Origin: Paraburkholderia edwinii
GTDB lineage: Bacteria; Pseudomonadota; Gammaproteobacteria; Burkholderiales; Burkholderiaceae
Assembly (NCBI RefSeq): GCF_019428685.1
Contig: NZ_CP080096.1
Span: 1,984,001-2,048,000 of the forward strand
Reading direction: 5' to 3'
DNA: 64,000 nt
The position numbers and the translations under genes were made by a program. The notes below the pieces were generated by a model, which saw nothing but the letters and a program-made list of their open reading frames with translations, had not been told where the DNA came from and did not search any database. Below are positions 19,323 to 31,773 of the stretch, piece after piece; position 1 is the stretch's first letter; each line of letters opens with the position of its first letter.

Positions 19323-21032
19323 ATGGCCCGCATCGTTCCCGACGACTGGAAGCACGTTGCCGCCGCCGGCGCCGCCGCGCGCGAAATCGAAACGCTGAGG
19401 CTGCTCGAAGAGGCGCTGCCGGCCGGCTACACGGTTTATCACGGCGTGCACTGGACGCGCGTCAACCAGGGCTTTTCGGTGTTCGGCGAAGCCGACTTCG
19501 TGATCGTCGCGCCGTCGGGGCGCGTGATGATCGTCGAACAGAAAACGGGCTTCCTGCGCGAAACGCCGAAGGGGCTCGTCAAGGCGTATCTGCAGACCGA
19601 ACGCAATGTGGCGATCGCGCTGGCGCGTACGATCGAAGGCTTGCATCGGCGTTTCACCGCGGCCTTCGGCGCGGGCACCTACTTCATCGAGGAATTGCTG
19701 TACTGCCCCGATCATGCGGTAAAAGATGCGGCGATTGCCGGCGTCGACCCGGCGCGTATCGTCGACGCGACGCGCAAGGACCGGCTCGCGGCGATCATCC
19801 GCGAAGCGCTGCCTGCCGACGAGCCGCGTTTGCCATGCGCGGCAAAGATCCATCATTTCCTGTCCGACGAACTGTCGCTGACGCCCGATGCGAGCGCGCT
19901 GGTCGGCCAGGCGGGCACGCTCGTCACGCGGCTCGCGGGCGGCCTCGCAACATGGGCGCGGCGGCTGGAGTTCACGCCGTTTCGTCTGCGCGTGATCGGC
20001 ACGGCCGGCTCGGGCAAGACGCAGCTCGCGGTGCAGGTGATGAACGACGCGGTCGCGCGCGGCCAGCGGCCGCTTTACGTGTGCTTCAACCGGCCGCTTG
20101 CCGATCACATTGCTCGCGTCGCGCCGCCCGAGGCGAAGGTCGCGAACTATCACCAGTTATGCGACTGGATCGCGCGCGACGCGGGCCGCGCGCCGGACTT
20201 CGCCGCGCCGGACGTCTTTGCGCAACTCGAAGCGGTCTTCGCGCAGACGCCGATCGACGCGCGCTGGCAATACGATGTGCTGATCGTCGACGAAGGGCAG
20301 GACTTCCGCGAAGCGTGGGTGCCGGCGCTCGAGCGCGTGCTGCGGCCGGGCGGCGCGTGGTGGTGGCTCGAAGATCCGCTGCAGAACCTGTATATGCGCG
20401 AGCCGGTCGCGCTGCCGGGCTGGACCGTGCTGAAGGAATCGACGAATTACCGCAGTCCGCGCGACATTCTCGACTATCTTCGCGACGTGGTCGGCGCATC
20501 GGTGCCGCACGCGGCGGAGCTGACCGCCGCGAGTCCGTTCGACGGCTCCGACATCGCGCTATCGACCTACGACGAAGCGCAAGCCGCCGACAGCTGTGTC
20601 GACGCGACCAAGCGCGCGATCACCCAGGCGCTTTCGCTCGGTTTTCGCAAGCAGGACATCGTCGTGCTGTCGTTTCGCGGACGCGAAGGCTCGGTGCTCG
20701 CGTCGCTCGATCAGCTGGGGCCGCACCGCGTGCGCAGCTTTACCGGCAAATACGATCTGTTCGGCAGCCCCGAGTACCGCGATGGCGACGTGCTGCTCGA
20801 ATCGATCTATCGCTTCAAGGGGCAGGCCGCGCCGTGCGTGATTCTCTCGGAAGTCGACTTCGACGCGTTCGACGAACGCAGTGCGAGAAAGCTTTTCGTC
20901 GGCGCGACGCGCGCGACCATGAAGCTGATCGTCGTCGCGTCGCAGCGTGCCGCGCGGTATCTGCAGTTAGGCGCGGGTGGAGCAGGCGAAGCCGGGGAGA
21001 CGGCCGCGCTCAACCCCAGCGCGACGCATTGA
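19323..21032 (+). CDS. NERD-type nuclease fused to a superfamily 1 helicase-like ATPase
   Basis: A 569-residue fusion. The N-terminus has a NERD/PD-(D/E)XK-like core: GEADFVIV (Asp58) then VMIVEQKTG (Glu72, Lys74), so the nuclease residues look intact. The second part is an SF1 motor: Walker A GTAGSGKT at 226-233, Walker B VDEGQD at 322-327, a motif III-like WWWLEDPLQNLY, and motif VI near LFVGATRATM. It is short for UvrD and lacks the large 1B/2B insertions. Such proteins act in DNA repair or phage defence; which applies here is not known. The ATG at 19323 is the first credible start. The 3' end overlaps the convergent PRT-HAD gene by 23 bp. Confidence 0.85.
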   Translation: MARIVPDDWKHVAAAGAAAREIETLRLLEEALPAGYTVYHGVHWTRVNQGFSVFGEADFVIVAPSGRVMIVEQKTGFLRETPKGLVKAYLQTERNVAIALARTIEGLHRRFTAAFGAGTYFIEELLYCPDHAVKDAAIAGVDPARIVDATRKDRLAAIIREALPADEPRLPCAAKIHHFLSDELSLTPDASALVGQAGTLVTRLAGGLATWARRLEFTPFRLRVIGTAGSGKTQLAVQVMNDAVARGQRPLYVCFNRPLADHIARVAPPEAKVANYHQLCDWIARDAGRAPDFAAPDVFAQLEAVFAQTPIDARWQYDVLIVDEGQDFREAWVPALERVLRPGGAWWWLEDPLQNLYMREPVALPGWTVLKESTNYRSPRDILDYLRDVVGASVPHAAELTAASPFDGSDIALSTYDEAQAADSCVDATKRAITQALSLGFRKQDIVVLSFRGREGSVLASLDQLGPHRVRSFTGKYDLFGSPEYRDGDVLLESIYRFKGQAAPCVILSEVDFDAFDERSARKLFVGATRATMKLIVVASQRAARYLQLGAGGAGEAGETAALNPSATH

Positions 21033-21957
21033 CGAGCGTGCCCGAACGCGTCTGCGCGTCCCACCAGATGACGCGCAAGAGCGGCGCCGCCTGCGCGATG
21101 CGCAGCGCCTGTACCGGATCGCTTTCGATGAAATGCGTGACGCCGCAGCGCAACGCGGCGGCCGCCTTGTGCGCGGCGGCGCCGAGCGGCGTTTCGTCGT
21201 GCTTGTCGGGCACCCGCATCACGAGTTCGAGATGCCCGAAGCCATGGCGTTCGAGCCACGCACGCGTGCGTTCGAGGTCCGTCTGGGGCCGGCCTGTGAT
21301 GACCGCGCGGACGTGCTGCAGGTCGATGCCGGGCAGCGCCTCGTACGGTTGCAGCGCATCGCGTTCGGCCAGCGCTGCGGCCAGGTCCGCGTCGTAGCGC
21401 GTGACCGGCACATCGGGCAGCAGAATGCCGTCGAGGTCGATTGCGTAGGACGCGTACTCGTGGTCATGCGACATCGTCTTCGCGGCGCCGGCTTCGACCT
21501 GCAGCCAGTCCTCGCGATAACCCTCGGTGTACGCCTGGCGCTCCCACGGAAACAGCGCGAAATAGCCGCTCGCATCGTTCGCGAAGTCGGGGCGGATGCG
21601 GCTCAGTTCGTCGAAGGCGCCTGTCAGCGTCTTGACGACGAGTCCATGCTGTTCGAGAAAAGCGATGCAGTCGACGAGCGTAAAGCCGCGGCCCGCAATG
21701 TCTTCGCATAACAGCACTTTCGAACCGGGCGCCGGCAGCGGCAGCGACGAATCCCACGTGACGTGGCGCGCGCGGCGGTCGTAGCTGAGGAACGCGACGG
21801 GCACGCCGACACTGTGCGACGCCATCAGCGCGAGGGGCGCGCCGCCGCGCAGGATGCCGATGGCGGCTGAAAACCCTTCTGCCAGCAAGGCTGGCTGCAA
21901 CGATTCGATCCAGTGGTCGAGCTTTTCGTAAGTGAGCGGAAGAACGGGCTTTTTCAT
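21010..21957 (-). CDS. Phosphoribosyltransferase-HAD hydrolase fusion protein
   Basis: A 315-residue two-domain protein. Residues 1-120 are a type I phosphoribosyltransferase: GFSAAIGILRGGAPLALM, then the PRPP-loop-like VLLCEDIAGRGFTL. Residues 165-315 are HAD-like: AIDLDGILLPDVP (Asp174 and Asp176), AVITGRPQTDLERTRAWLE, and THFIESDPVQALRIA. A HAD domain paired with a PRT suggests nucleotide or nucleobase handling, for example clearing a phosphoribosyl product, but I know no characterised match. The ATG at 21957 starts the PRT domain; a longer upstream frame shows no homology. It overlaps the nuclease-helicase gene tail to tail. Confidence 0.8.
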   Translation of the reverse strand: MKKPVLPLTYEKLDHWIESLQPALLAEGFSAAIGILRGGAPLALMASHSVGVPVAFLSYDRRARHVTWDSSLPLPAPGSKVLLCEDIAGRGFTLVDCIAFLEQHGLVVKTLTGAFDELSRIRPDFANDASGYFALFPWERQAYTEGYREDWLQVEAGAAKTMSHDHEYASYAIDLDGILLPDVPVTRYDADLAAALAERDALQPYEALPGIDLQHVRAVITGRPQTDLERTRAWLERHGFGHLELVMRVPDKHDETPLGAAAHKAAAALRCGVTHFIESDPVQALRIAQAAPLLRVIWWDAQTRSGTLVNASRWG

Positions 21958-22248
21958 GGGCTGGCGTTCGGTTACGTTCAATGGCGCGAATTGACGTTGG
22001 AAGAGGGCCGATGGGTCGATACGCGTGAGCCGCCGGCGTGACGGCTTTTTCGGGATGGAGGCGATATTATGCATGCGGTTCACCGAATGCGCGCTTCGGA
22101 TCGCGCTTCGCATGGGACGAGGCGTACGGTGAATCACCACAAACAACGGAAAAGAACAGGCCAGGTCATGCGGGAACAGGAAGGGAAATTGCGCGGGATT
22201 TTGCGCGGCTCAGCGGGCAACGCGGGGTACAACGCAGAGGACAGGACA

Positions 22249-22767
22249 GTGCGGCATTCGCGCAGCCGGGGGTTCACTGCAATACGTCACAAGCTGACAT
22301 TTGCGATACTCGGATGCTGCGCGGCCGCGGCGGCCCATGCGACGCCGATGGCGCTCGATGTCACGGGCAAGATTTCCAATACGACGGATAGCGCGCACCG
22401 CGTGTTTCACTTTTCGGAAGCGCAGATTCTCGCGATGCCCGCGCACTCGATTTCGACCTCGACCTCATGGACGCCGAAATCGACCTTCACGGGCCCGTTG
22501 CTCGCGGATATCCTGAAAGAGGTGGGTGCGTACGGCGAGCGCATCGAAGTCCACACCTACGACGACTACACGTACACGTTACCGGTGTCGGACACCGATC
22601 GTTATGGTGTGATCGTCGCGTATAGCATGAACGGCAAGCGGCTCAAAATCAGCGATTTCGGACCGCTCTTCCTCATTTATCCGCGTGACGCGTACCCGGC
22701 GGAACTGACCGGCGCGGCTACGGATGCGAAATTCGTATGGCAGATCAAGGCTTTGATCATCAAGTGA
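22249..22767 (+). CDS. Periplasmic SUOX-fold (oxidoreductase molybdopterin-binding-like) protein lacking the cofactor cysteine
   Basis: A 172-residue exported protein. A GTG at 22249 with AGGACAGGAC before it gives a normal signal peptide (LTFAILGCCAAAAAHA); an earlier ATG at 22168 would give a very long n-region. The mature part fits the short sulfite-oxidase-like fold: FHFSEAQILAMPAHSI, FTGPLLADILKEVGAYGE, and FGPLFLIYPRDAY. In true molybdoenzymes a Cys follows the LP/MP block and binds Moco; here that stretch reads STSTSWTPKST with no Cys. It overlaps the kinase gene by 31 bp, so it is probably a periplasmic ligand-sensing partner of the kinase and not an enzyme. Confidence 0.75.
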   Translation: MRHSRSRGFTAIRHKLTFAILGCCAAAAAHATPMALDVTGKISNTTDSAHRVFHFSEAQILAMPAHSISTSTSWTPKSTFTGPLLADILKEVGAYGERIEVHTYDDYTYTLPVSDTDRYGVIVAYSMNGKRLKISDFGPLFLIYPRDAYPAELTGAATDAKFVWQIKALIIK

Positions 22768-24686
22768 CGGGGCGGCCGGAGACGCAACGGCCGTCGATGC
22801 AGCCGGACTCAGCGCAGCCGTCGCCGCAGGCGTCGACACGCCGCGCGTCGCATCCGTGGCGGCGGCGCATCGTCTATGTGCTGATCTGGCTGACGGCGCT
22901 TGCCGCGCCGACCGCCGCGATCGGCTACCTGCTCTATGCGACGCTGCTGAGCCCGCGCGTGACACAGCTCGCGGAATCGTACGACGGCGTCTACTGGGAC
23001 GCCGCGCAGCTGCAGATCGCCTATGCGCGGCTCGAAAGCCAGCTGCTGCAATACGAAACCGGCATCGACGGCGACTACGCGCAATTGAGGCTGCAATACC
23101 ACGTGCTGCAGTCGAAGCTGCGCGTGATGGCCGGTTCGACGCGCCAGCTCGCCGCGCGCCAGCTTGCCGGGAAGGCGGCGCACACCGAAGAACAGCAGCG
23201 TGAGATCCAGACCCTGACCGACATGCTCGCCGCGCTCGAACCGACGCTCGATGCGTTGCCGCGCGACCCGATGCTCGCCGACAAGATCGTGCTCGAGCTG
23301 CGCCGCCATTGGGAAGAGATCAACCATCTCGCGCTGTCGCGCCGTACCTCGGAGGTGGCCAACCGCACGGCACTCAATACCGATTTTGTGGCGAAGCGGC
23401 GCATGCTGTTCGCGGCCGGTCTGGTGCTGCTGTTGCTGTCGGCGGCGGCGAGCGTGCAGCTCGTGGTCAACGCGCGGCGGCGCACGAAGCTCATCAGGCA
23501 GCAGCGCGCCGCGCTCGACGCCGAGCATCAGGCCACGCGCGCCGCGCGCGAAGCAAGCCTCGCGAAGGACGCGTTTCTCGGCATGATCAGCCACGAGCTG
23601 CGCACGCCGTTGCACGCGATCGTGTCGTCGATCGAACTGCTCGGTTTCAACTTCCACTCCGAGGCCGATCGCAAGGTGATCCGCCGTCTCGAAGTGGCCG
23701 CGCGCCAGCTCGAAACGCAGATGAAGGATCTGACCGACTACGCGCGCCTCGGCGCGGGCAAGCTCGAACTGCGCGACGAGCAGTTCGATCCGCGCGACCT
23801 GCTTGCGTCGGTCGTCGACGAAAGCGAGCCGGCCGCGAACGCGCGTGGTCTTGCGTTCGCGAGCAGCGCCGGCGGGGCCGTGGGCCTCGTCGAGTCGGAC
23901 CCGCACCGGATTCGCCAGATCGTCACCAATCTTGTGACGAATGCGATCCGCTACACCGAAAAGGGCACGGTGACGCTGCGTTTCGAGCAGCGCAGCGACG
24001 CGCTCGTGATCGTGGTCGGCGATACCGGGCCCGGTGTGCCGAGTGCGCAGATTCCATTGATCTTCAAGGAGTTCACGCGCCTCGATGAATCGCGCGCGCG
24101 ACGCTTCGACGGCGCGGGGATGGGGCTCGCGATCGTGCAGGGGCTCGTCGATCTGTTCGGCGGCGAGCTAGTAGTCGATAGCCGCGTGGGCCTCGGCTCG
24201 ACCTTTACCGTCACGATTCCGGTGAAGCCGGTCGCGCCGCCGGCCGCGGCAAGCATCGCCGCGCGTGCGCAGCGGCGCACCGCGCGACCGCGCGTGCTGG
24301 TGGTGGACGATAACCAGCTCGTGCGCGAATCGCTATGCGAGATGGTCGAGCATATGGGATACGAAGGCGCGGCGGTCGGCGGCGTGGATGCGGCCTTCGC
24401 GTGGCTCGAGACGCAGCAGTGCGAACTGATCCTGCTCGACCTGCAGATGCCGGGCAAGGACGGCTATGCGTTCATCGGTGCATTCAATGCGGACGATGCG
24501 CGTGCGCGCAGCGTGCCGGTGATCGCTGTAACCGCTTACGCGCCTGAATTGCAGACGCACGGCGCCGCCCATCTTTTCTTCGACTGTCTGACGAAGCCCG
24601 TGCACTACGATGTGCTGCACGCCGCCGTGCATCGCGCGCTCGCCGCGCAAGGCAGTACGGCGGGCGGGGCGGCCACGGTGGCGTAA
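22737..24686 (+). CDS. Membrane-bound hybrid sensor histidine kinase
   Basis: A 649-residue hybrid kinase. Two membrane helices (about 45-70 and 223-245) flank an all-helical periplasmic sensor of about 150 residues with no named fold. The HisKA site is HELRTP (His286). The ATPase domain has the N-box TNLVTNAIRYTEKG, GDTGPGVP and GAGMGLAIVQGL. A C-terminal receiver carries Asp568 in ELILLDLQMPGKDGY and Lys in LTKPV. The ATG at 22737 lies inside the end of the upstream SUOX-fold gene, implying translational coupling; an ATG at 22797 is an alternative. It is convergent with a BetR-receiver regulator, its likely partner. Confidence 0.93.
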   Translation: MADQGFDHQVTGRPETQRPSMQPDSAQPSPQASTRRASHPWRRRIVYVLIWLTALAAPTAAIGYLLYATLLSPRVTQLAESYDGVYWDAAQLQIAYARLESQLLQYETGIDGDYAQLRLQYHVLQSKLRVMAGSTRQLAARQLAGKAAHTEEQQREIQTLTDMLAALEPTLDALPRDPMLADKIVLELRRHWEEINHLALSRRTSEVANRTALNTDFVAKRRMLFAAGLVLLLLSAAASVQLVVNARRRTKLIRQQRAALDAEHQATRAAREASLAKDAFLGMISHELRTPLHAIVSSIELLGFNFHSEADRKVIRRLEVAARQLETQMKDLTDYARLGAGKLELRDEQFDPRDLLASVVDESEPAANARGLAFASSAGGAVGLVESDPHRIRQIVTNLVTNAIRYTEKGTVTLRFEQRSDALVIVVGDTGPGVPSAQIPLIFKEFTRLDESRARRFDGAGMGLAIVQGLVDLFGGELVVDSRVGLGSTFTVTIPVKPVAPPAAASIAARAQRRTARPRVLVVDDNQLVRESLCEMVEHMGYEGAAVGGVDAAFAWLETQQCELILLDLQMPGKDGYAFIGAFNADDARARSVPVIAVTAYAPELQTHGAAHLFFDCLTKPVHYDVLHAAVHRALAAQGSTAGGAATVA

Positions 24687-24728
24687 CGTCAGCAGTGTCA
24701 GTCTCGCCGGGCTGCGATGGCGTAACGG

Positions 24729-25613
24729 CTAGCGCCGCAGCCGCTTCGACAGATCGGCCACCAGAATCGCCATCCGTGCAGGCTTCTCATAGCACGCGAC
24801 ATCGCATGCGCGCACGATCTCGCTGATGTCGGACTCGCTGGCCTTGCCCGTCAGCAGTTCACCGGTCAGCACGAAGATCGGCGCATCCGGGTTTTCCGAC
24901 GCGCGCACCGCGCGAATCGCGTTGGCCGAAGTCTGATCGCCGAACAGCCAGTCGATCACGACGCCATCGAATACTTGTGTCTGCAACGATTCGTTGAACG
25001 CCGCGAGGCCGTAGATCGCGACGGCCGCGAAGCCGTTGCGCTCGAGGTAGTCGCGCAGATTGTCCGCCGAGACGTGGTCGTCGTCGACCACCGCGATCAG
25101 CGGCTTGTCGGTCTCCGCGCGGCGCGGGTATATCTCGATCTTGTGGACTTCGAACGCGTTCTGATAAAGCGCGCCATCGCAGCGCACGACGCGCCACTGG
25201 TCGTGCTTCGACCACGCGATGAACTCGGGCCGGCTGCCCGGCTCGATCGGCGCGCCGACCCACGCGGTACACGCAATCTCGGTCGAGCCGATGCTGAAGA
25301 GCGCCTCCTGCGCCGTTGCGCCGACCATGCCCGGATCGAGCGACTGCGCGCCGAACAGCTGCGCGGCCGGCTCGTCGAACACTTCGGCGACTTTCCTGAT
25401 TTGCGAGAGCGTCCACGGACTGTTGCCGCGCAGCTTGCGATGGCCCTGCGAGAAGCTCAGGTCGAGGATGCGGCACAACTCGCTGGTTTGCTGGCGCTTG
25501 GCAATGCCGTGCCGGCTCATCAGTTCGCGCACGCGTTCGGCAACGGCGAGAGAGTCAGCGGAGAGAGCGTCGTTGGACATGCTGGATGTTTGTTCAGTCG
25601 TCGAGTTATTCAT
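24729..25613 (-). CDS. BetR-domain/receiver transcriptional regulator
   Basis: A 294-residue regulator with an N-terminal HTH of the BetR type (about 22-85: VAERVRELMSRHGIAKRQQT, then HRKLRGNSPWTLSQIRKVAEVF). A middle region of about 75 residues is unassigned, and a receiver is at the C-terminus (about 172-290). The receiver has the acidic pocket VVDDDH, acceptor Asp221 in GVVIDWLFGD, Thr in FVLTGEL and Lys in CYEKPA. The order DNA-binding first, receiver last is the reverse of most response regulators. Its stop is 42 bp from the stop of the convergent hybrid kinase. The start may be 25613 or the ATG at 25580; neither has a strong ribosome site. Confidence 0.85.
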   Translation of the reverse strand: MNNSTTEQTSSMSNDALSADSLAVAERVRELMSRHGIAKRQQTSELCRILDLSFSQGHRKLRGNSPWTLSQIRKVAEVFDEPAAQLFGAQSLDPGMVGATAQEALFSIGSTEIACTAWVGAPIEPGSRPEFIAWSKHDQWRVVRCDGALYQNAFEVHKIEIYPRRAETDKPLIAVVDDDHVSADNLRDYLERNGFAAVAIYGLAAFNESLQTQVFDGVVIDWLFGDQTSANAIRAVRASENPDAPIFVLTGELLTGKASESDISEIVRACDVACYEKPARMAILVADLSKRLRR

Positions 25614-30659: not shown

Positions 30660-30715
30660 TTAAGGTTGACAATAAAATCCTTAAAGTTGACAATTAAGTC
30701 GCTTAAGGTTGTCAA
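30660..30715 (+). promoter_or_regulatory. Three direct repeats with embedded promoter before the HTH-HATPase-STAS gene
   Basis: The sequence TTAAGGTTGACAAT (30660), TTAAAGTTGACAAT (30681) and TTAAGGTTGTCAA (30703) occurs three times in the same direction at 21 and 22 bp spacing, two helical turns. The first holds a perfect -35 hexamer TTGACA (30666-30671). With a 17-bp spacer the second repeat supplies GACAAT as a -10-like hexamer. The third ends 11 bp before the GTG start. An array on one DNA face suggests cooperative binding, possibly autoregulation by the downstream HTH protein. Confidence 0.7.
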
Positions 30716-30726
30716 AGAGGCGCGCA

Positions 30727-31773
30727 GTGAATACGAGAATCCGTCCACAAGGCGAGCAGGTCCGCGGTTTCCTGCTCGAACATATTGAATCGCATCAGGG
30801 CGACGTCGTCGCGCTCACCGCAGATCACTTCTCGATCAGTCGCCAGGCTGTGAACAAGCACCTGCTTGTACTGCGCGAGCAAGGCGCGATTGTCAAAGAA
30901 GGCAATACGAGGGATGCGCGCTACAGGCTTGTCCCTCTCGCCACTGAGAGCTTCCGGTTTCCGTTGACGGGTGAACTCGAAGAAAACGTGATCTGGAGCG
31001 AAGTCGTCAGGCCCTTGATCGAACCGCTTCCAGCCAACGTGCTCAATATATGGCACCACGGCTTCACGGAAATCTTTAATAACGCGATCGACCATTCAAA
31101 CGGGACCACGGTTCTGGTGAAAATCACGCGAACCGCGGTATCCACGGAAATCATGGTTTCGGATGATGGTGTCGGGATCTTCAGAAAGATTCAGGCCGAA
31201 TTGAATCTGCTCGACGAGCGCCATGCAATCTTCGAATTGGCAAAAGGCAAACTGACCACCGATCCCCAGAATCACTCGGGGGAGGGGATCTTTTTCACCT
31301 CGCGCATGTTCGACCAGTTCGGGATTCTCTCGGGCGCACTTTATTTCGATCACCATAAGGATTCGTCGGAAGACGTGGTAATGGAACGTGAGGTCGCTGC
31401 GGGCGGTACGTCTGTTTTTATGACGTTGAGCAATCGTGCGGCACACACAACCAAAGAAATTTTCGACGAATACACCGAAAACGAGGACTACACGTTCGAC
31501 CGAACTGTCGTGCCGGTCGATCTCGCTAAATACGGCGTGGACGAATTGATTTCGCGGTCGCAGGCAAAACGATTACTTGCACGCCTCGACCTGTTTAAAA
31601 GAGTGGTGTTGGATTTCCGGAACGTCGACATGATTGGCCAAGCGTTTGCGGATCAGATCTTTCGCGTCTTCGCGAACGAGCATCCGGAAATAGAATTATT
31701 GGCGACCAATACGAGCGTGGCCGTACAGCAGATGATCTCTCGCGCTCGCGCGCAGCGCGAAGCGGCTCAGTGA
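30727..31773 (+). CDS. Winged-HTH / GHKL ATPase / STAS-like (DUF4325) signalling protein
   Basis: A 348-residue single protein with three parts. An N-terminal winged HTH (about 8-65: DHFSISRQAVNKHLLVLREQ). A GHKL ATPase domain of the RsbW type (about 100-225) with the N-box GFTEIFNNAIDHS and VSDDGVGIF, then HSGEGIFFTSRMF. A C-terminal STAS-like DUF4325 domain (FKRVVLDFRNVDMIGQAFAD). It thus joins DNA binding, an anti-sigma-kinase-type ATPase and an anti-anti-sigma-type domain, with no separate partner. The GTG at 30727 follows AAGAGG at 7 bp; a TTG six codons earlier is weaker. Base composition is clearly lower in G/C than neighbouring genes, suggesting transfer. Confidence 0.8.
   Translation: MNTRIRPQGEQVRGFLLEHIESHQGDVVALTADHFSISRQAVNKHLLVLREQGAIVKEGNTRDARYRLVPLATESFRFPLTGELEENVIWSEVVRPLIEPLPANVLNIWHHGFTEIFNNAIDHSNGTTVLVKITRTAVSTEIMVSDDGVGIFRKIQAELNLLDERHAIFELAKGKLTTDPQNHSGEGIFFTSRMFDQFGILSGALYFDHHKDSSEDVVMEREVAAGGTSVFMTLSNRAAHTTKEIFDEYTENEDYTFDRTVVPVDLAKYGVDELISRSQAKRLLARLDLFKRVVLDFRNVDMIGQAFADQIFRVFANEHPEIELLATNTSVAVQQMISRARAQREAAQ

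What the first reader, a model, noticed from the sequence alone, without database searches (positions are those of the whole stretch)
22249..25613. Candidate new signalling module: cofactor-less SUOX-fold protein, hybrid kinase and BetR-receiver regulator
A periplasmic sulfite-oxidase-fold protein that lacks the Moco cysteine overlaps a hybrid kinase gene by 31 bp, and a BetR-receiver regulator converges on it 42 bp away. The kinase has an all-helical periplasmic sensor of no named fold. This suggests a retired enzyme fold used as a soluble ligand sensor that reports to the kinase, which then phosphorylates its own receiver and the BetR regulator. The family calls come from motifs; the wiring is inference.
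Basis: partly seen in the sequence, partly recalled or inferred. Interest (0 to 1): 0.72.

Follow-up and report, generated by a model that had tools for sequence, protein, structure and literature searches.

The report
Pterin-type sensor with kinase and BetR
Three neighbouring genes of a soil Paraburkholderia probably let the cell sense a small pterin molecule in its periplasm and change gene expression; the arrangement is already known from a few other bacteria, but comparing them suggests what their unidentified signal may be.

Summary
In detail: a 172-aa sulfite-oxidase-fold protein without the molybdenum-ligand cysteine overlaps a hybrid kinase gene by 31 bp, and a BetR-receiver regulator converges on it 42 bp away. 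It is not a new module. The small protein belongs to PruR, the periplasmic pterin-binding family (best fold matches: five PruR crystal entries, one with neopterin). The kinase sensor matches the DcpA-type domain of PruR-linked cyclases (profile probability 98%). The layout equals the published Chromobacterium air system and, by sequence, Serratia Reg1-Reg2-BetR.

Linkage is strong: in 249 Burkholderiaceae genomes, 75 of 79 clear PruR genes have BetR within 6 kb. Of 80 PruR places sampled outside the family none has BetR, but in a Serratia-containing family all 7 genomes with a clearly scoring BetR show the same layout.

Two less ordinary points: BetR-coupled kinases lack the Glu of the WX7E motif of PruR partners, and PruR was lost at least twice while kinase and BetR stayed.

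The signal is probably a reduced pterin; binding was not tested. The PruR review I read in part does not mention Serratia or Chromobacterium, nor does the Serratia paper mention pterins. The main PruR paper was not held.

The parts
22249..22767 (+). PruR-type pterin-binding SUOX-fold protein, 172 aa (GTG start as in the finding; an in-frame ATG lies at 22069). Hydrophobic helix at residues 12-23, then the mature domain
   Evidence: Pfam PF00174 32.5 bits; PDB sequence matches 7rkb, 7kos, 7kom and 7kp2, all named pterin-binding or Oxidored_molyb domain proteins; AlphaFold2 model pLDDT 90.6; best Foldseek matches are the PruR entries
22468..22470 (+). codon of Trp74; the review says that PruR proteins have Trp in place of the Moco-ligand Cys. 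In a sequence alignment with the YedY-like protein of the same genome the Cys falls 3-4 residues before Trp74 (Thr70/Ser71)
   Evidence: W in 121 of 121 rows, no Cys at residues 65-80; alignment with the genome's own SUOX proteins; PMC13259868 section 7
22737..24686 (+). hybrid histidine kinase, 649 aa: two TM helices around a periplasmic helical sensor, HisKA (His286), HATPase_c, receiver (Asp568)
   Evidence: Pfam; best NCBIfam match TorS, 238.5 bits, below its cut-off of 676.5; His286 in 57 of 57 and Asp568 in 56 of 57 aligned kinases, 1 gap
22932..23402 (+). periplasmic sensor (about residues 66-222), four-helix bundle, DcpA-type; Trp87 of the WX7E motif kept (22995-22997), Glu replaced by Ala95
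   Evidence: AlphaFold2 model pLDDT 90.2; profile match to PruR-linked cyclase sensors, probability 98.0, E 2.6e-13; motif counts
24729..25613 (-). BetR-receiver response regulator, 294 aa: BetR DNA-binding domain (residues 20-163, window 25125-25556) and receiver (Asp221; 24732-25097)
   Evidence: BetR PF08667 180 bits; Asp177, Asp178, Asp221, Thr250 and Lys277 in 79 of 79 aligned BetR proteins

Best explanation
An air-type, PruR-based two-component system. The PruR-type protein is secreted, binds a small, probably reduced pterin such as tetrahydromonapterin in its truncated SUOX pocket, and in that state docks on the DcpA-type helical sensor of the kinase. This shifts kinase activity; the phosphate passes through the kinase's own receiver, or directly, to Asp221 of the BetR regulator, which changes transcription. 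Shown here: gene layout, family membership by sequence and fold, loss of the Moco cysteine, homology of the kinase sensor to the PruR-partner domain, conserved linkage of the three genes, conserved phosphorelay residues. Inferred: pterin binding, docking, direction of the switch, phosphotransfer, target genes. A periplasmic pterin as the signal rests on homology to PruR.
For: PruR family by sequence (E 6.4e-19 to 7rkb) and fold (7kos target TM up to 0.90; 7rkb is the K. pneumoniae PruR-neopterin complex). No Moco Cys, Trp74 invariant; no Tat-like RRxF[LI] string in the first 60 residues of 120 relatives. DcpA-type sensor. Linkage 75 of 79, 78 of 79, and 7 of 7 in the Serratia-containing family. 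Serratia marcescens protein 98% identical to the PruR of L300. airM is required in Chromobacterium. The genome has an SDR with TGAARRIG and YTLSK, fitting the TGX3RXG and YX3K of pteridine reductases, beside a FolB-family gene.
Against: No binding or phosphotransfer data for this locus. The kinase lacks the Glu of WX7E, so docking may differ. PruR is absent from 21 genomes that keep kinase and BetR, with Trp87 and Gln91 unchanged in all 21 kinases, so PruR is not always needed or that patch has another role. The SDR scores 117 bits against the dihydromonapterin reductase model, below its cut-off of 249. About half of the BetR genes (75 of 149) are not near a PruR gene. Foldseek gave no significant match for the sensor model (best E 0.036).
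Confidence: 0.75

Rival explanations
1. The SUOX-fold protein senses something other than a free pterin (for example redox state, or a lipid or peptide cue). The fold is shared but the ligand differs.
For: The window protein has Asp (residue 105) where A. tumefaciens PruR appears to have Asn102 (alignments); the review ties this change to other groups and possibly to pterin specificity. The air-system authors suggest an oxidative or membrane-lipid signal (passages). The BetR-coupled kinases lack the Glu of the partner motif.
Against: Close fold and sequence kinship to PruR proteins from four species with solved structures, one in complex with neopterin by its title.
Confidence: 0.17
2. It is a Moco enzyme of the sulfite oxidase or MsrP (YedY) kind that happens to lie beside a two-component system.
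For: PF00174 match; databases name relatives molybdopterin-dependent oxidoreductase.
Against: No Cys at the ligand site in 121 of 121 rows; 172 aa against the 263-aa and longer chains of the solved SUOX-family enzymes; conserved fusion of its fate with the kinase gene.
Confidence: 0.02
3. The kinase and BetR form the working system and the PruR-type protein is a dispensable modulator that some lineages dropped.
For: Two PruR losses with kinase and BetR kept (tree); 0 of 21 such genomes has a PruR-type match above 34.3 bits, against about 200 bits in the 2 controls.
Against: In Chromobacterium airS alone did not restore the response, airMS did. In 75 of 79 cases PruR comes with BetR.
Confidence: 0.06

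Closest known systems
air system (airM-airS, convergent airR) of Chromobacterium violaceum ATCC 31532, PMC7240160 (passages read)
   Same: Same three proteins: secreted OxMoco-domain protein, hybrid kinase in operon, convergent BetR-receiver regulator. The paper says that similar systems occur in other Chromobacterium and in Burkholderia.
   Different: AirM itself was not fetched, so its kinship to PruR rests on the published domain call. The signal there is linked to translation inhibitors; nothing is known for the window. A second paper saw no such violacein phenotype in strain 12472 (PMC11019928, passages).
Reg1-Reg2-BetR of Serratia marcescens (Reg2-BetR also called EepS-EepR), PMC7618870 (abstract and passages)
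   Same: PruR-type gene, kinase and convergent BetR in the same layout in loci L298-L303; the PruR of L300 is 98% identical to a named S. marcescens protein.
   Different: Kinase sensor only 18-20% identical in the four rows aligned and Lys instead of Ala at the Glu place. The paper leaves the signal unknown. That Reg1 is this PruR-type protein is inferred from gene order and species.
PruR-DcpA and PruR-DTB systems (PMC13259868, sections 5, 7 and 8 read; PNAS 2024 e2319903121 not held)
   Same: SUOX fold without Moco Cys, gene directly upstream of the partner, DcpA-type periplasmic sensor, TorS-like kinase with receiver.
   Different: No Glu in WX7E; a BetR regulator is coupled; DcpA has cyclase and phosphodiesterase output instead of a kinase.
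XylFII-LytS complex (PDB 5xsj, seen as a fold match)
   Same: Works alike: a binding protein outside the membrane and a helical-bundle kinase sensor in one complex (entry title; mechanism recalled).

Membership tests
PruR pterin-binding proteins | small SUOX-type fold, about 170 aa | tested here: met
   172 aa; model pLDDT 90.6; five PruR entries rank first, 7kos target TM up to 0.90
PruR pterin-binding proteins | no Moco-ligand Cys; Trp instead | tested here: met
   0 of 121 rows with Cys at residues 65-80, Trp74 in 121 of 121. Exact register of the Cys is 3-4 residues before Trp74 in my alignment
PruR pterin-binding proteins | N-terminal secretion signal, periplasmic | tested here: inconclusive
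   predicted helix at residues 12-23 and an AHA site by eye; no signal-peptide program was at hand; no Tat-like RRxF[LI] in 120 relatives
PruR pterin-binding proteins | conserved Tyr of the pterin site | tested here: inconclusive
   Tyr107 in 121 of 121 and nearly invariant in 41 diverse rows, but I could not map the review's Tyr to a residue
PruR pterin-binding proteins | binds reduced pterins | not testable with these tools
   needs protein and ligand
[quoted passage not shown]
   hhalign probability 98.0, E 2.6e-13 against 23 PruR-linked cyclase sensors; three single-sequence kinase controls under 1%
[quoted passage not shown]
   window WDAAQLQIA. Trp in 57 of 57 tree kinases, Glu in 0 of 57. 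In 79 regulators outside the family: Trp and Glu in register in 56 of 79
[quoted passage not shown]
   TorS is the best of 152 NCBIfam matches, below its cut-off; receiver PF00072
air-type module (airMS, convergent airR) | secreted OxMoco protein and kinase as overlapping or adjacent genes, BetR-receiver gene convergent | tested here: met
   78 of 78 named loci convergent
air-type module (airMS, convergent airR) | the OxMoco protein is needed for signalling; response to translation inhibitors | not testable with these tools
   genetic experiment needed; published only for Chromobacterium
Moco sulfite oxidase / MsrP enzymes | Cys ligand of molybdenum | tested here: not met

The most novel reading that the evidence does not exclude
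The BetR-coupled PruR systems of Paraburkholderia, Serratia (Reg1-Reg2-BetR, EepSR) and Chromobacterium (air) are one branch of pterin signalling that uses a modified PruR-sensor contact (Glu lost) and ends in BetR. The unidentified signal of the Serratia lifestyle switch and of the antibiotic-induced response would then be a periplasmic, redox-sensitive pterin. In most sampled Caballeronia genomes of this genus group the kinase works without PruR.
Probability: 0.55. Interest if true: 0.7.

Novelty: new member of a known kind. Interest (0 to 1): 0.45.

Why it matters
Two published systems that govern competition, antibiotic production, motility and adhesion have a periplasmic sensor whose ligand is unknown. 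If their small protein is a PruR, the ligand class is guessed and can be tested with a handful of pterins. It would also extend pterin signalling from cyclic-di-GMP to a transcription-factor output. The lineages that lost PruR but kept the kinase are a natural test of what PruR adds.

Tried and rejected
Moco enzyme beside a kinase by chance: rejected (no Cys, conserved linkage). New module: rejected after the literature search. Sensor domain without known kin: rejected by profile comparison, although Foldseek found no significant structural match (best E 0.036) and the VIA-align list holds common helical bundles, many of them designed proteins, so it names no family. Relaxed constraint on the sensor after PruR loss: periplasmic-to-core divergence ratio 2.34 in 19 Caballeronia-clade kinases, 1.82 in 27 Paraburkholderia kinases with PruR, 2.03 in one PruR-positive Caballeronia pair; too small a difference to claim.

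Led nowhere: Chromobacterium itself could not be fetched. BetR-like hits in the order sample (G1116, G1151, G1044), the class sample (G055) and G673 lie beside no PruR or kinase found by my seeds. Of the four literature searches naming BetR or pterin-binding kinases, two returned no paper. One paper search and one genome search were left unused.

Rows dropped before counts: 31 of 110 rows (47.7 bits or less); 11 of 91 rows (4 of the own family, G745 as a copy of G747, 6 of the weakest) before fetching 80 places; L215 and L221 from the sensor alignment as badly cropped.

Weak spots: downstream ORFs were picked by script. Of the 79 named-locus ORFs scanned, 4 held a WX7E string, which look like out-of-frame or over-long ORFs; in the 80 best-kinase ORFs, 73 gave a W...A string, 4 gave strings that look out of frame and 3 gave none. 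Two of 18 BetR-coupled kinases checked one by one (L082, L307) lack the Trp too. The hhalign controls were three single sequences only.
Full report
WHAT IS THERE. The window lies in a two-contig genome of 8.3 Mb and is Paraburkholderia by its relatives (nearest named PruR relatives P. humisilvae 89% and P. solisilvae 87%). The three genes sit exactly where the finding puts them: a 172-aa ORF at 22249-22767, a 649-aa hybrid kinase at 22737-24686 and, on the other strand, a 294-aa BetR-receiver regulator at 24729-25613. Pfam confirms the domains. The kinase has His286 and receiver Asp568; His286 is in 57 of 57 and Asp568 in 56 of 57 aligned kinases, with one gap. The regulator's Asp177, Asp178, Asp221, Thr250 and Lys277 are in 79 of 79 aligned BetR proteins.

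THE SMALL PROTEIN IS A PruR. A sequence search of solved structures gave four distinct sequences, three named pterin-binding protein and one Oxidored_molyb domain-containing protein (7rkb, 7kos, 7kom, 7kp2; E 6.4e-19 to 4.1e-11). The AlphaFold2 model (41 sequences, pLDDT 90.6) matches PruR of Agrobacterium, Klebsiella (with neopterin), Vibrio vulnificus and V. cholerae before any sulfite oxidase or YedY entry. No row of 121 has a Cys at residues 65-80, and Trp74 is invariant. A 2026 review states that PruR proteins lack the Moco Cys, have Trp instead, have a truncated pterin pocket and are about 170 aa with a secretion signal (PMC13259868, sections 5, 7 and 8 read plus passages). In A. tumefaciens PruR prefers tetrahydromonapterin and docks on the periplasmic part of DcpA (same source).

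THE KINASE SENSOR IS DcpA-TYPE. The model of residues 40-270 is all helical (pLDDT 90.2). A profile of 67 sensors of the BetR-coupled type matches a profile of 23 PruR-linked cyclase sensors (probability 98.0, E 2.6e-13, 171 columns), with Trp on Trp; three single-sequence controls gave under 1% against it. The review describes PruR-DTB systems with the same sensor on TorS- or BaeS-like kinases; TorS is the best NCBIfam match here, below its cut-off. The reported WX7E motif is changed: WDAAQLQIA. Trp is kept in 57 of 57 tree kinases and Gln91 too; the Glu column holds Ala in 36 of 36 with PruR and Ala 19, Thr 1, Gly 1 in 21 without. In 79 regulators from other families the same column, in register, holds Glu 59, Gln 8, Asp 7, other 5; Trp and Glu together 56 of 79. 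Six Serratia-type kinases have Lys there. Two other BetR-linked kinases of 18 checked one by one lack even the Trp (L082, L307).

LINKAGE. In 249 Burkholderiaceae genomes BetR (PF08667) occurs in 112 and P0001-type genes at 79 places of at least 104.7 bits (31 weaker rows left out). 75 of 79 have BetR within 6 kb: 48 convergent, 27 on the same strand with BetR upstream (of these, one is a second PruR beside a convergent pair); about 0.2 expected by a rough estimate. Of the four others, two are on contig ends, one is near a contig start, and one (G367) is truly alone. Conversely 75 of 149 BetR genes are not near such a gene. Of 80 named loci, 79 gave a PruR ORF and 78 of 79 have the full set; the exception runs off its contig. 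In a sample of 397 genomes of the phylum 73 have PruR-type genes. I fetched 80 of the 87 places outside the own family: downstream lies a hybrid kinase in 29, a kinase in 20, a GGDEF protein in 23 (9 with EAL), other or none in 8, and BetR in 0 of 80 by the window's BetR as seed. PF08667 matches 8 of 397 of these genomes, at high score only in the 4 Burkholderiaceae. In 198 genomes of a family that holds Serratia, 10 match BetR; the 7 with 86 bits or more all have PruR, kinase and convergent BetR in the same layout, though in one (L304) the kinase and BetR frames are broken.

ALREADY IN PRINT. The air system is airM-airS convergent with airR (BetR-REC); airS alone did not restore the tetracycline response, airMS did; the authors saw similar systems in Burkholderia and took AirM for an oxidoreductase (PMC7240160, passages). 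Serratia Reg1-Reg2-BetR is described as periplasmic sensor, kinase and BetR regulator, always together, signal unknown (PMC7618870, abstract and passages). The PruR of L300 is 98% identical to a named S. marcescens protein. The review does not hold the words Chromobacterium, Serratia, BetR or response regulator; the Serratia paper does not hold pterin, molybdopterin, PruR or Chromobacterium; a later Chromobacterium paper does not hold pterin. Searches for PruR with pterin, pterin-binding with kinases, EepR-EepS and airMS listed no paper whose title or abstract start joins them; I did not open all of those listed. The main PruR paper (PNAS 2024) is not in the library, so the join may be printed there.

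AGAINST A SIMPLE STORY. In 21 genomes (19 in one clade with Caballeronia, 2 small genomes of the window's genus) the kinase and BetR stand without PruR. None has a PruR-type match elsewhere: best 34.3 bits, in ORFs of 254 aa or more, against about 200 bits in two controls. A tree of 57 kinases needs two changes of this trait; since PruR is present in the outlying rows, these are most simply losses. Trp87 and Gln91 stay in 21 of 21. So the kinase can persist without PruR. Three further loci of another genus have BetR alone.

PTERIN SUPPLY. The genome has two FolB-family genes. Next to one lies an SDR with TGAARRIG and YTLSK, which fits the pteridine reductase motifs given in the review, but it scores 117 bits against the dihydromonapterin reductase model, under the cut-off of 249.

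VERDICT. A Paraburkholderia member of a known kind: an air-type two-component system with a PruR sensor. Confidence 0.75 in the mechanism as stated. What is of use is the join: three literatures appear to describe one pathway, which points to a pterin as the missing signal.

Noticed in passing
L072, L073, L308-L324 (Caballeronia clade), L075 and L088: PruR gene gone, kinase and convergent BetR kept; in the four looked at (L072, L073, L075, L088) the kinase directly follows or overlaps the NERD/UvrD-like helicase gene that lies further upstream in the window.
   Followed up: partly
window 19323-21032 (+): 569-aa protein with a NERD-like N-terminus and UvrD-type helicase C-terminus; its homologue adjoins the kinase in the PruR-less loci.
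   Followed up: partly
window 21010-22146 (-): 378-aa ORF with an N-terminal phosphoribosyltransferase match; the C-terminal half looks HAD-like by eye only.
   Followed up: no
window 30709-31773 (+): 354-aa protein that by eye joins a helix-turn-helix N-terminus, an HATPase-like part and a short C-terminal domain; no family search was made.
   Followed up: no
L071, L086 and similar Burkholderia-like loci: alternative order betR-pruR-kinase on one strand, with BetR about 500 bp upstream of PruR (27 same-strand pairs, one of them a second PruR at 4.3 kb).
   Followed up: partly
L070, L074, L081, L325-L327: BetR-receiver genes without PruR or a related kinase beside them: apparent orphans.
   Followed up: no
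L304 (contig length equals that of a Serratia rubidaea record): kinase and BetR reading frames are broken; the assembly is 91% complete, so this may be sequencing error.
   Followed up: no
L084: two divergent PruR-kinase pairs in one locus, one with a convergent BetR.
   Followed up: no
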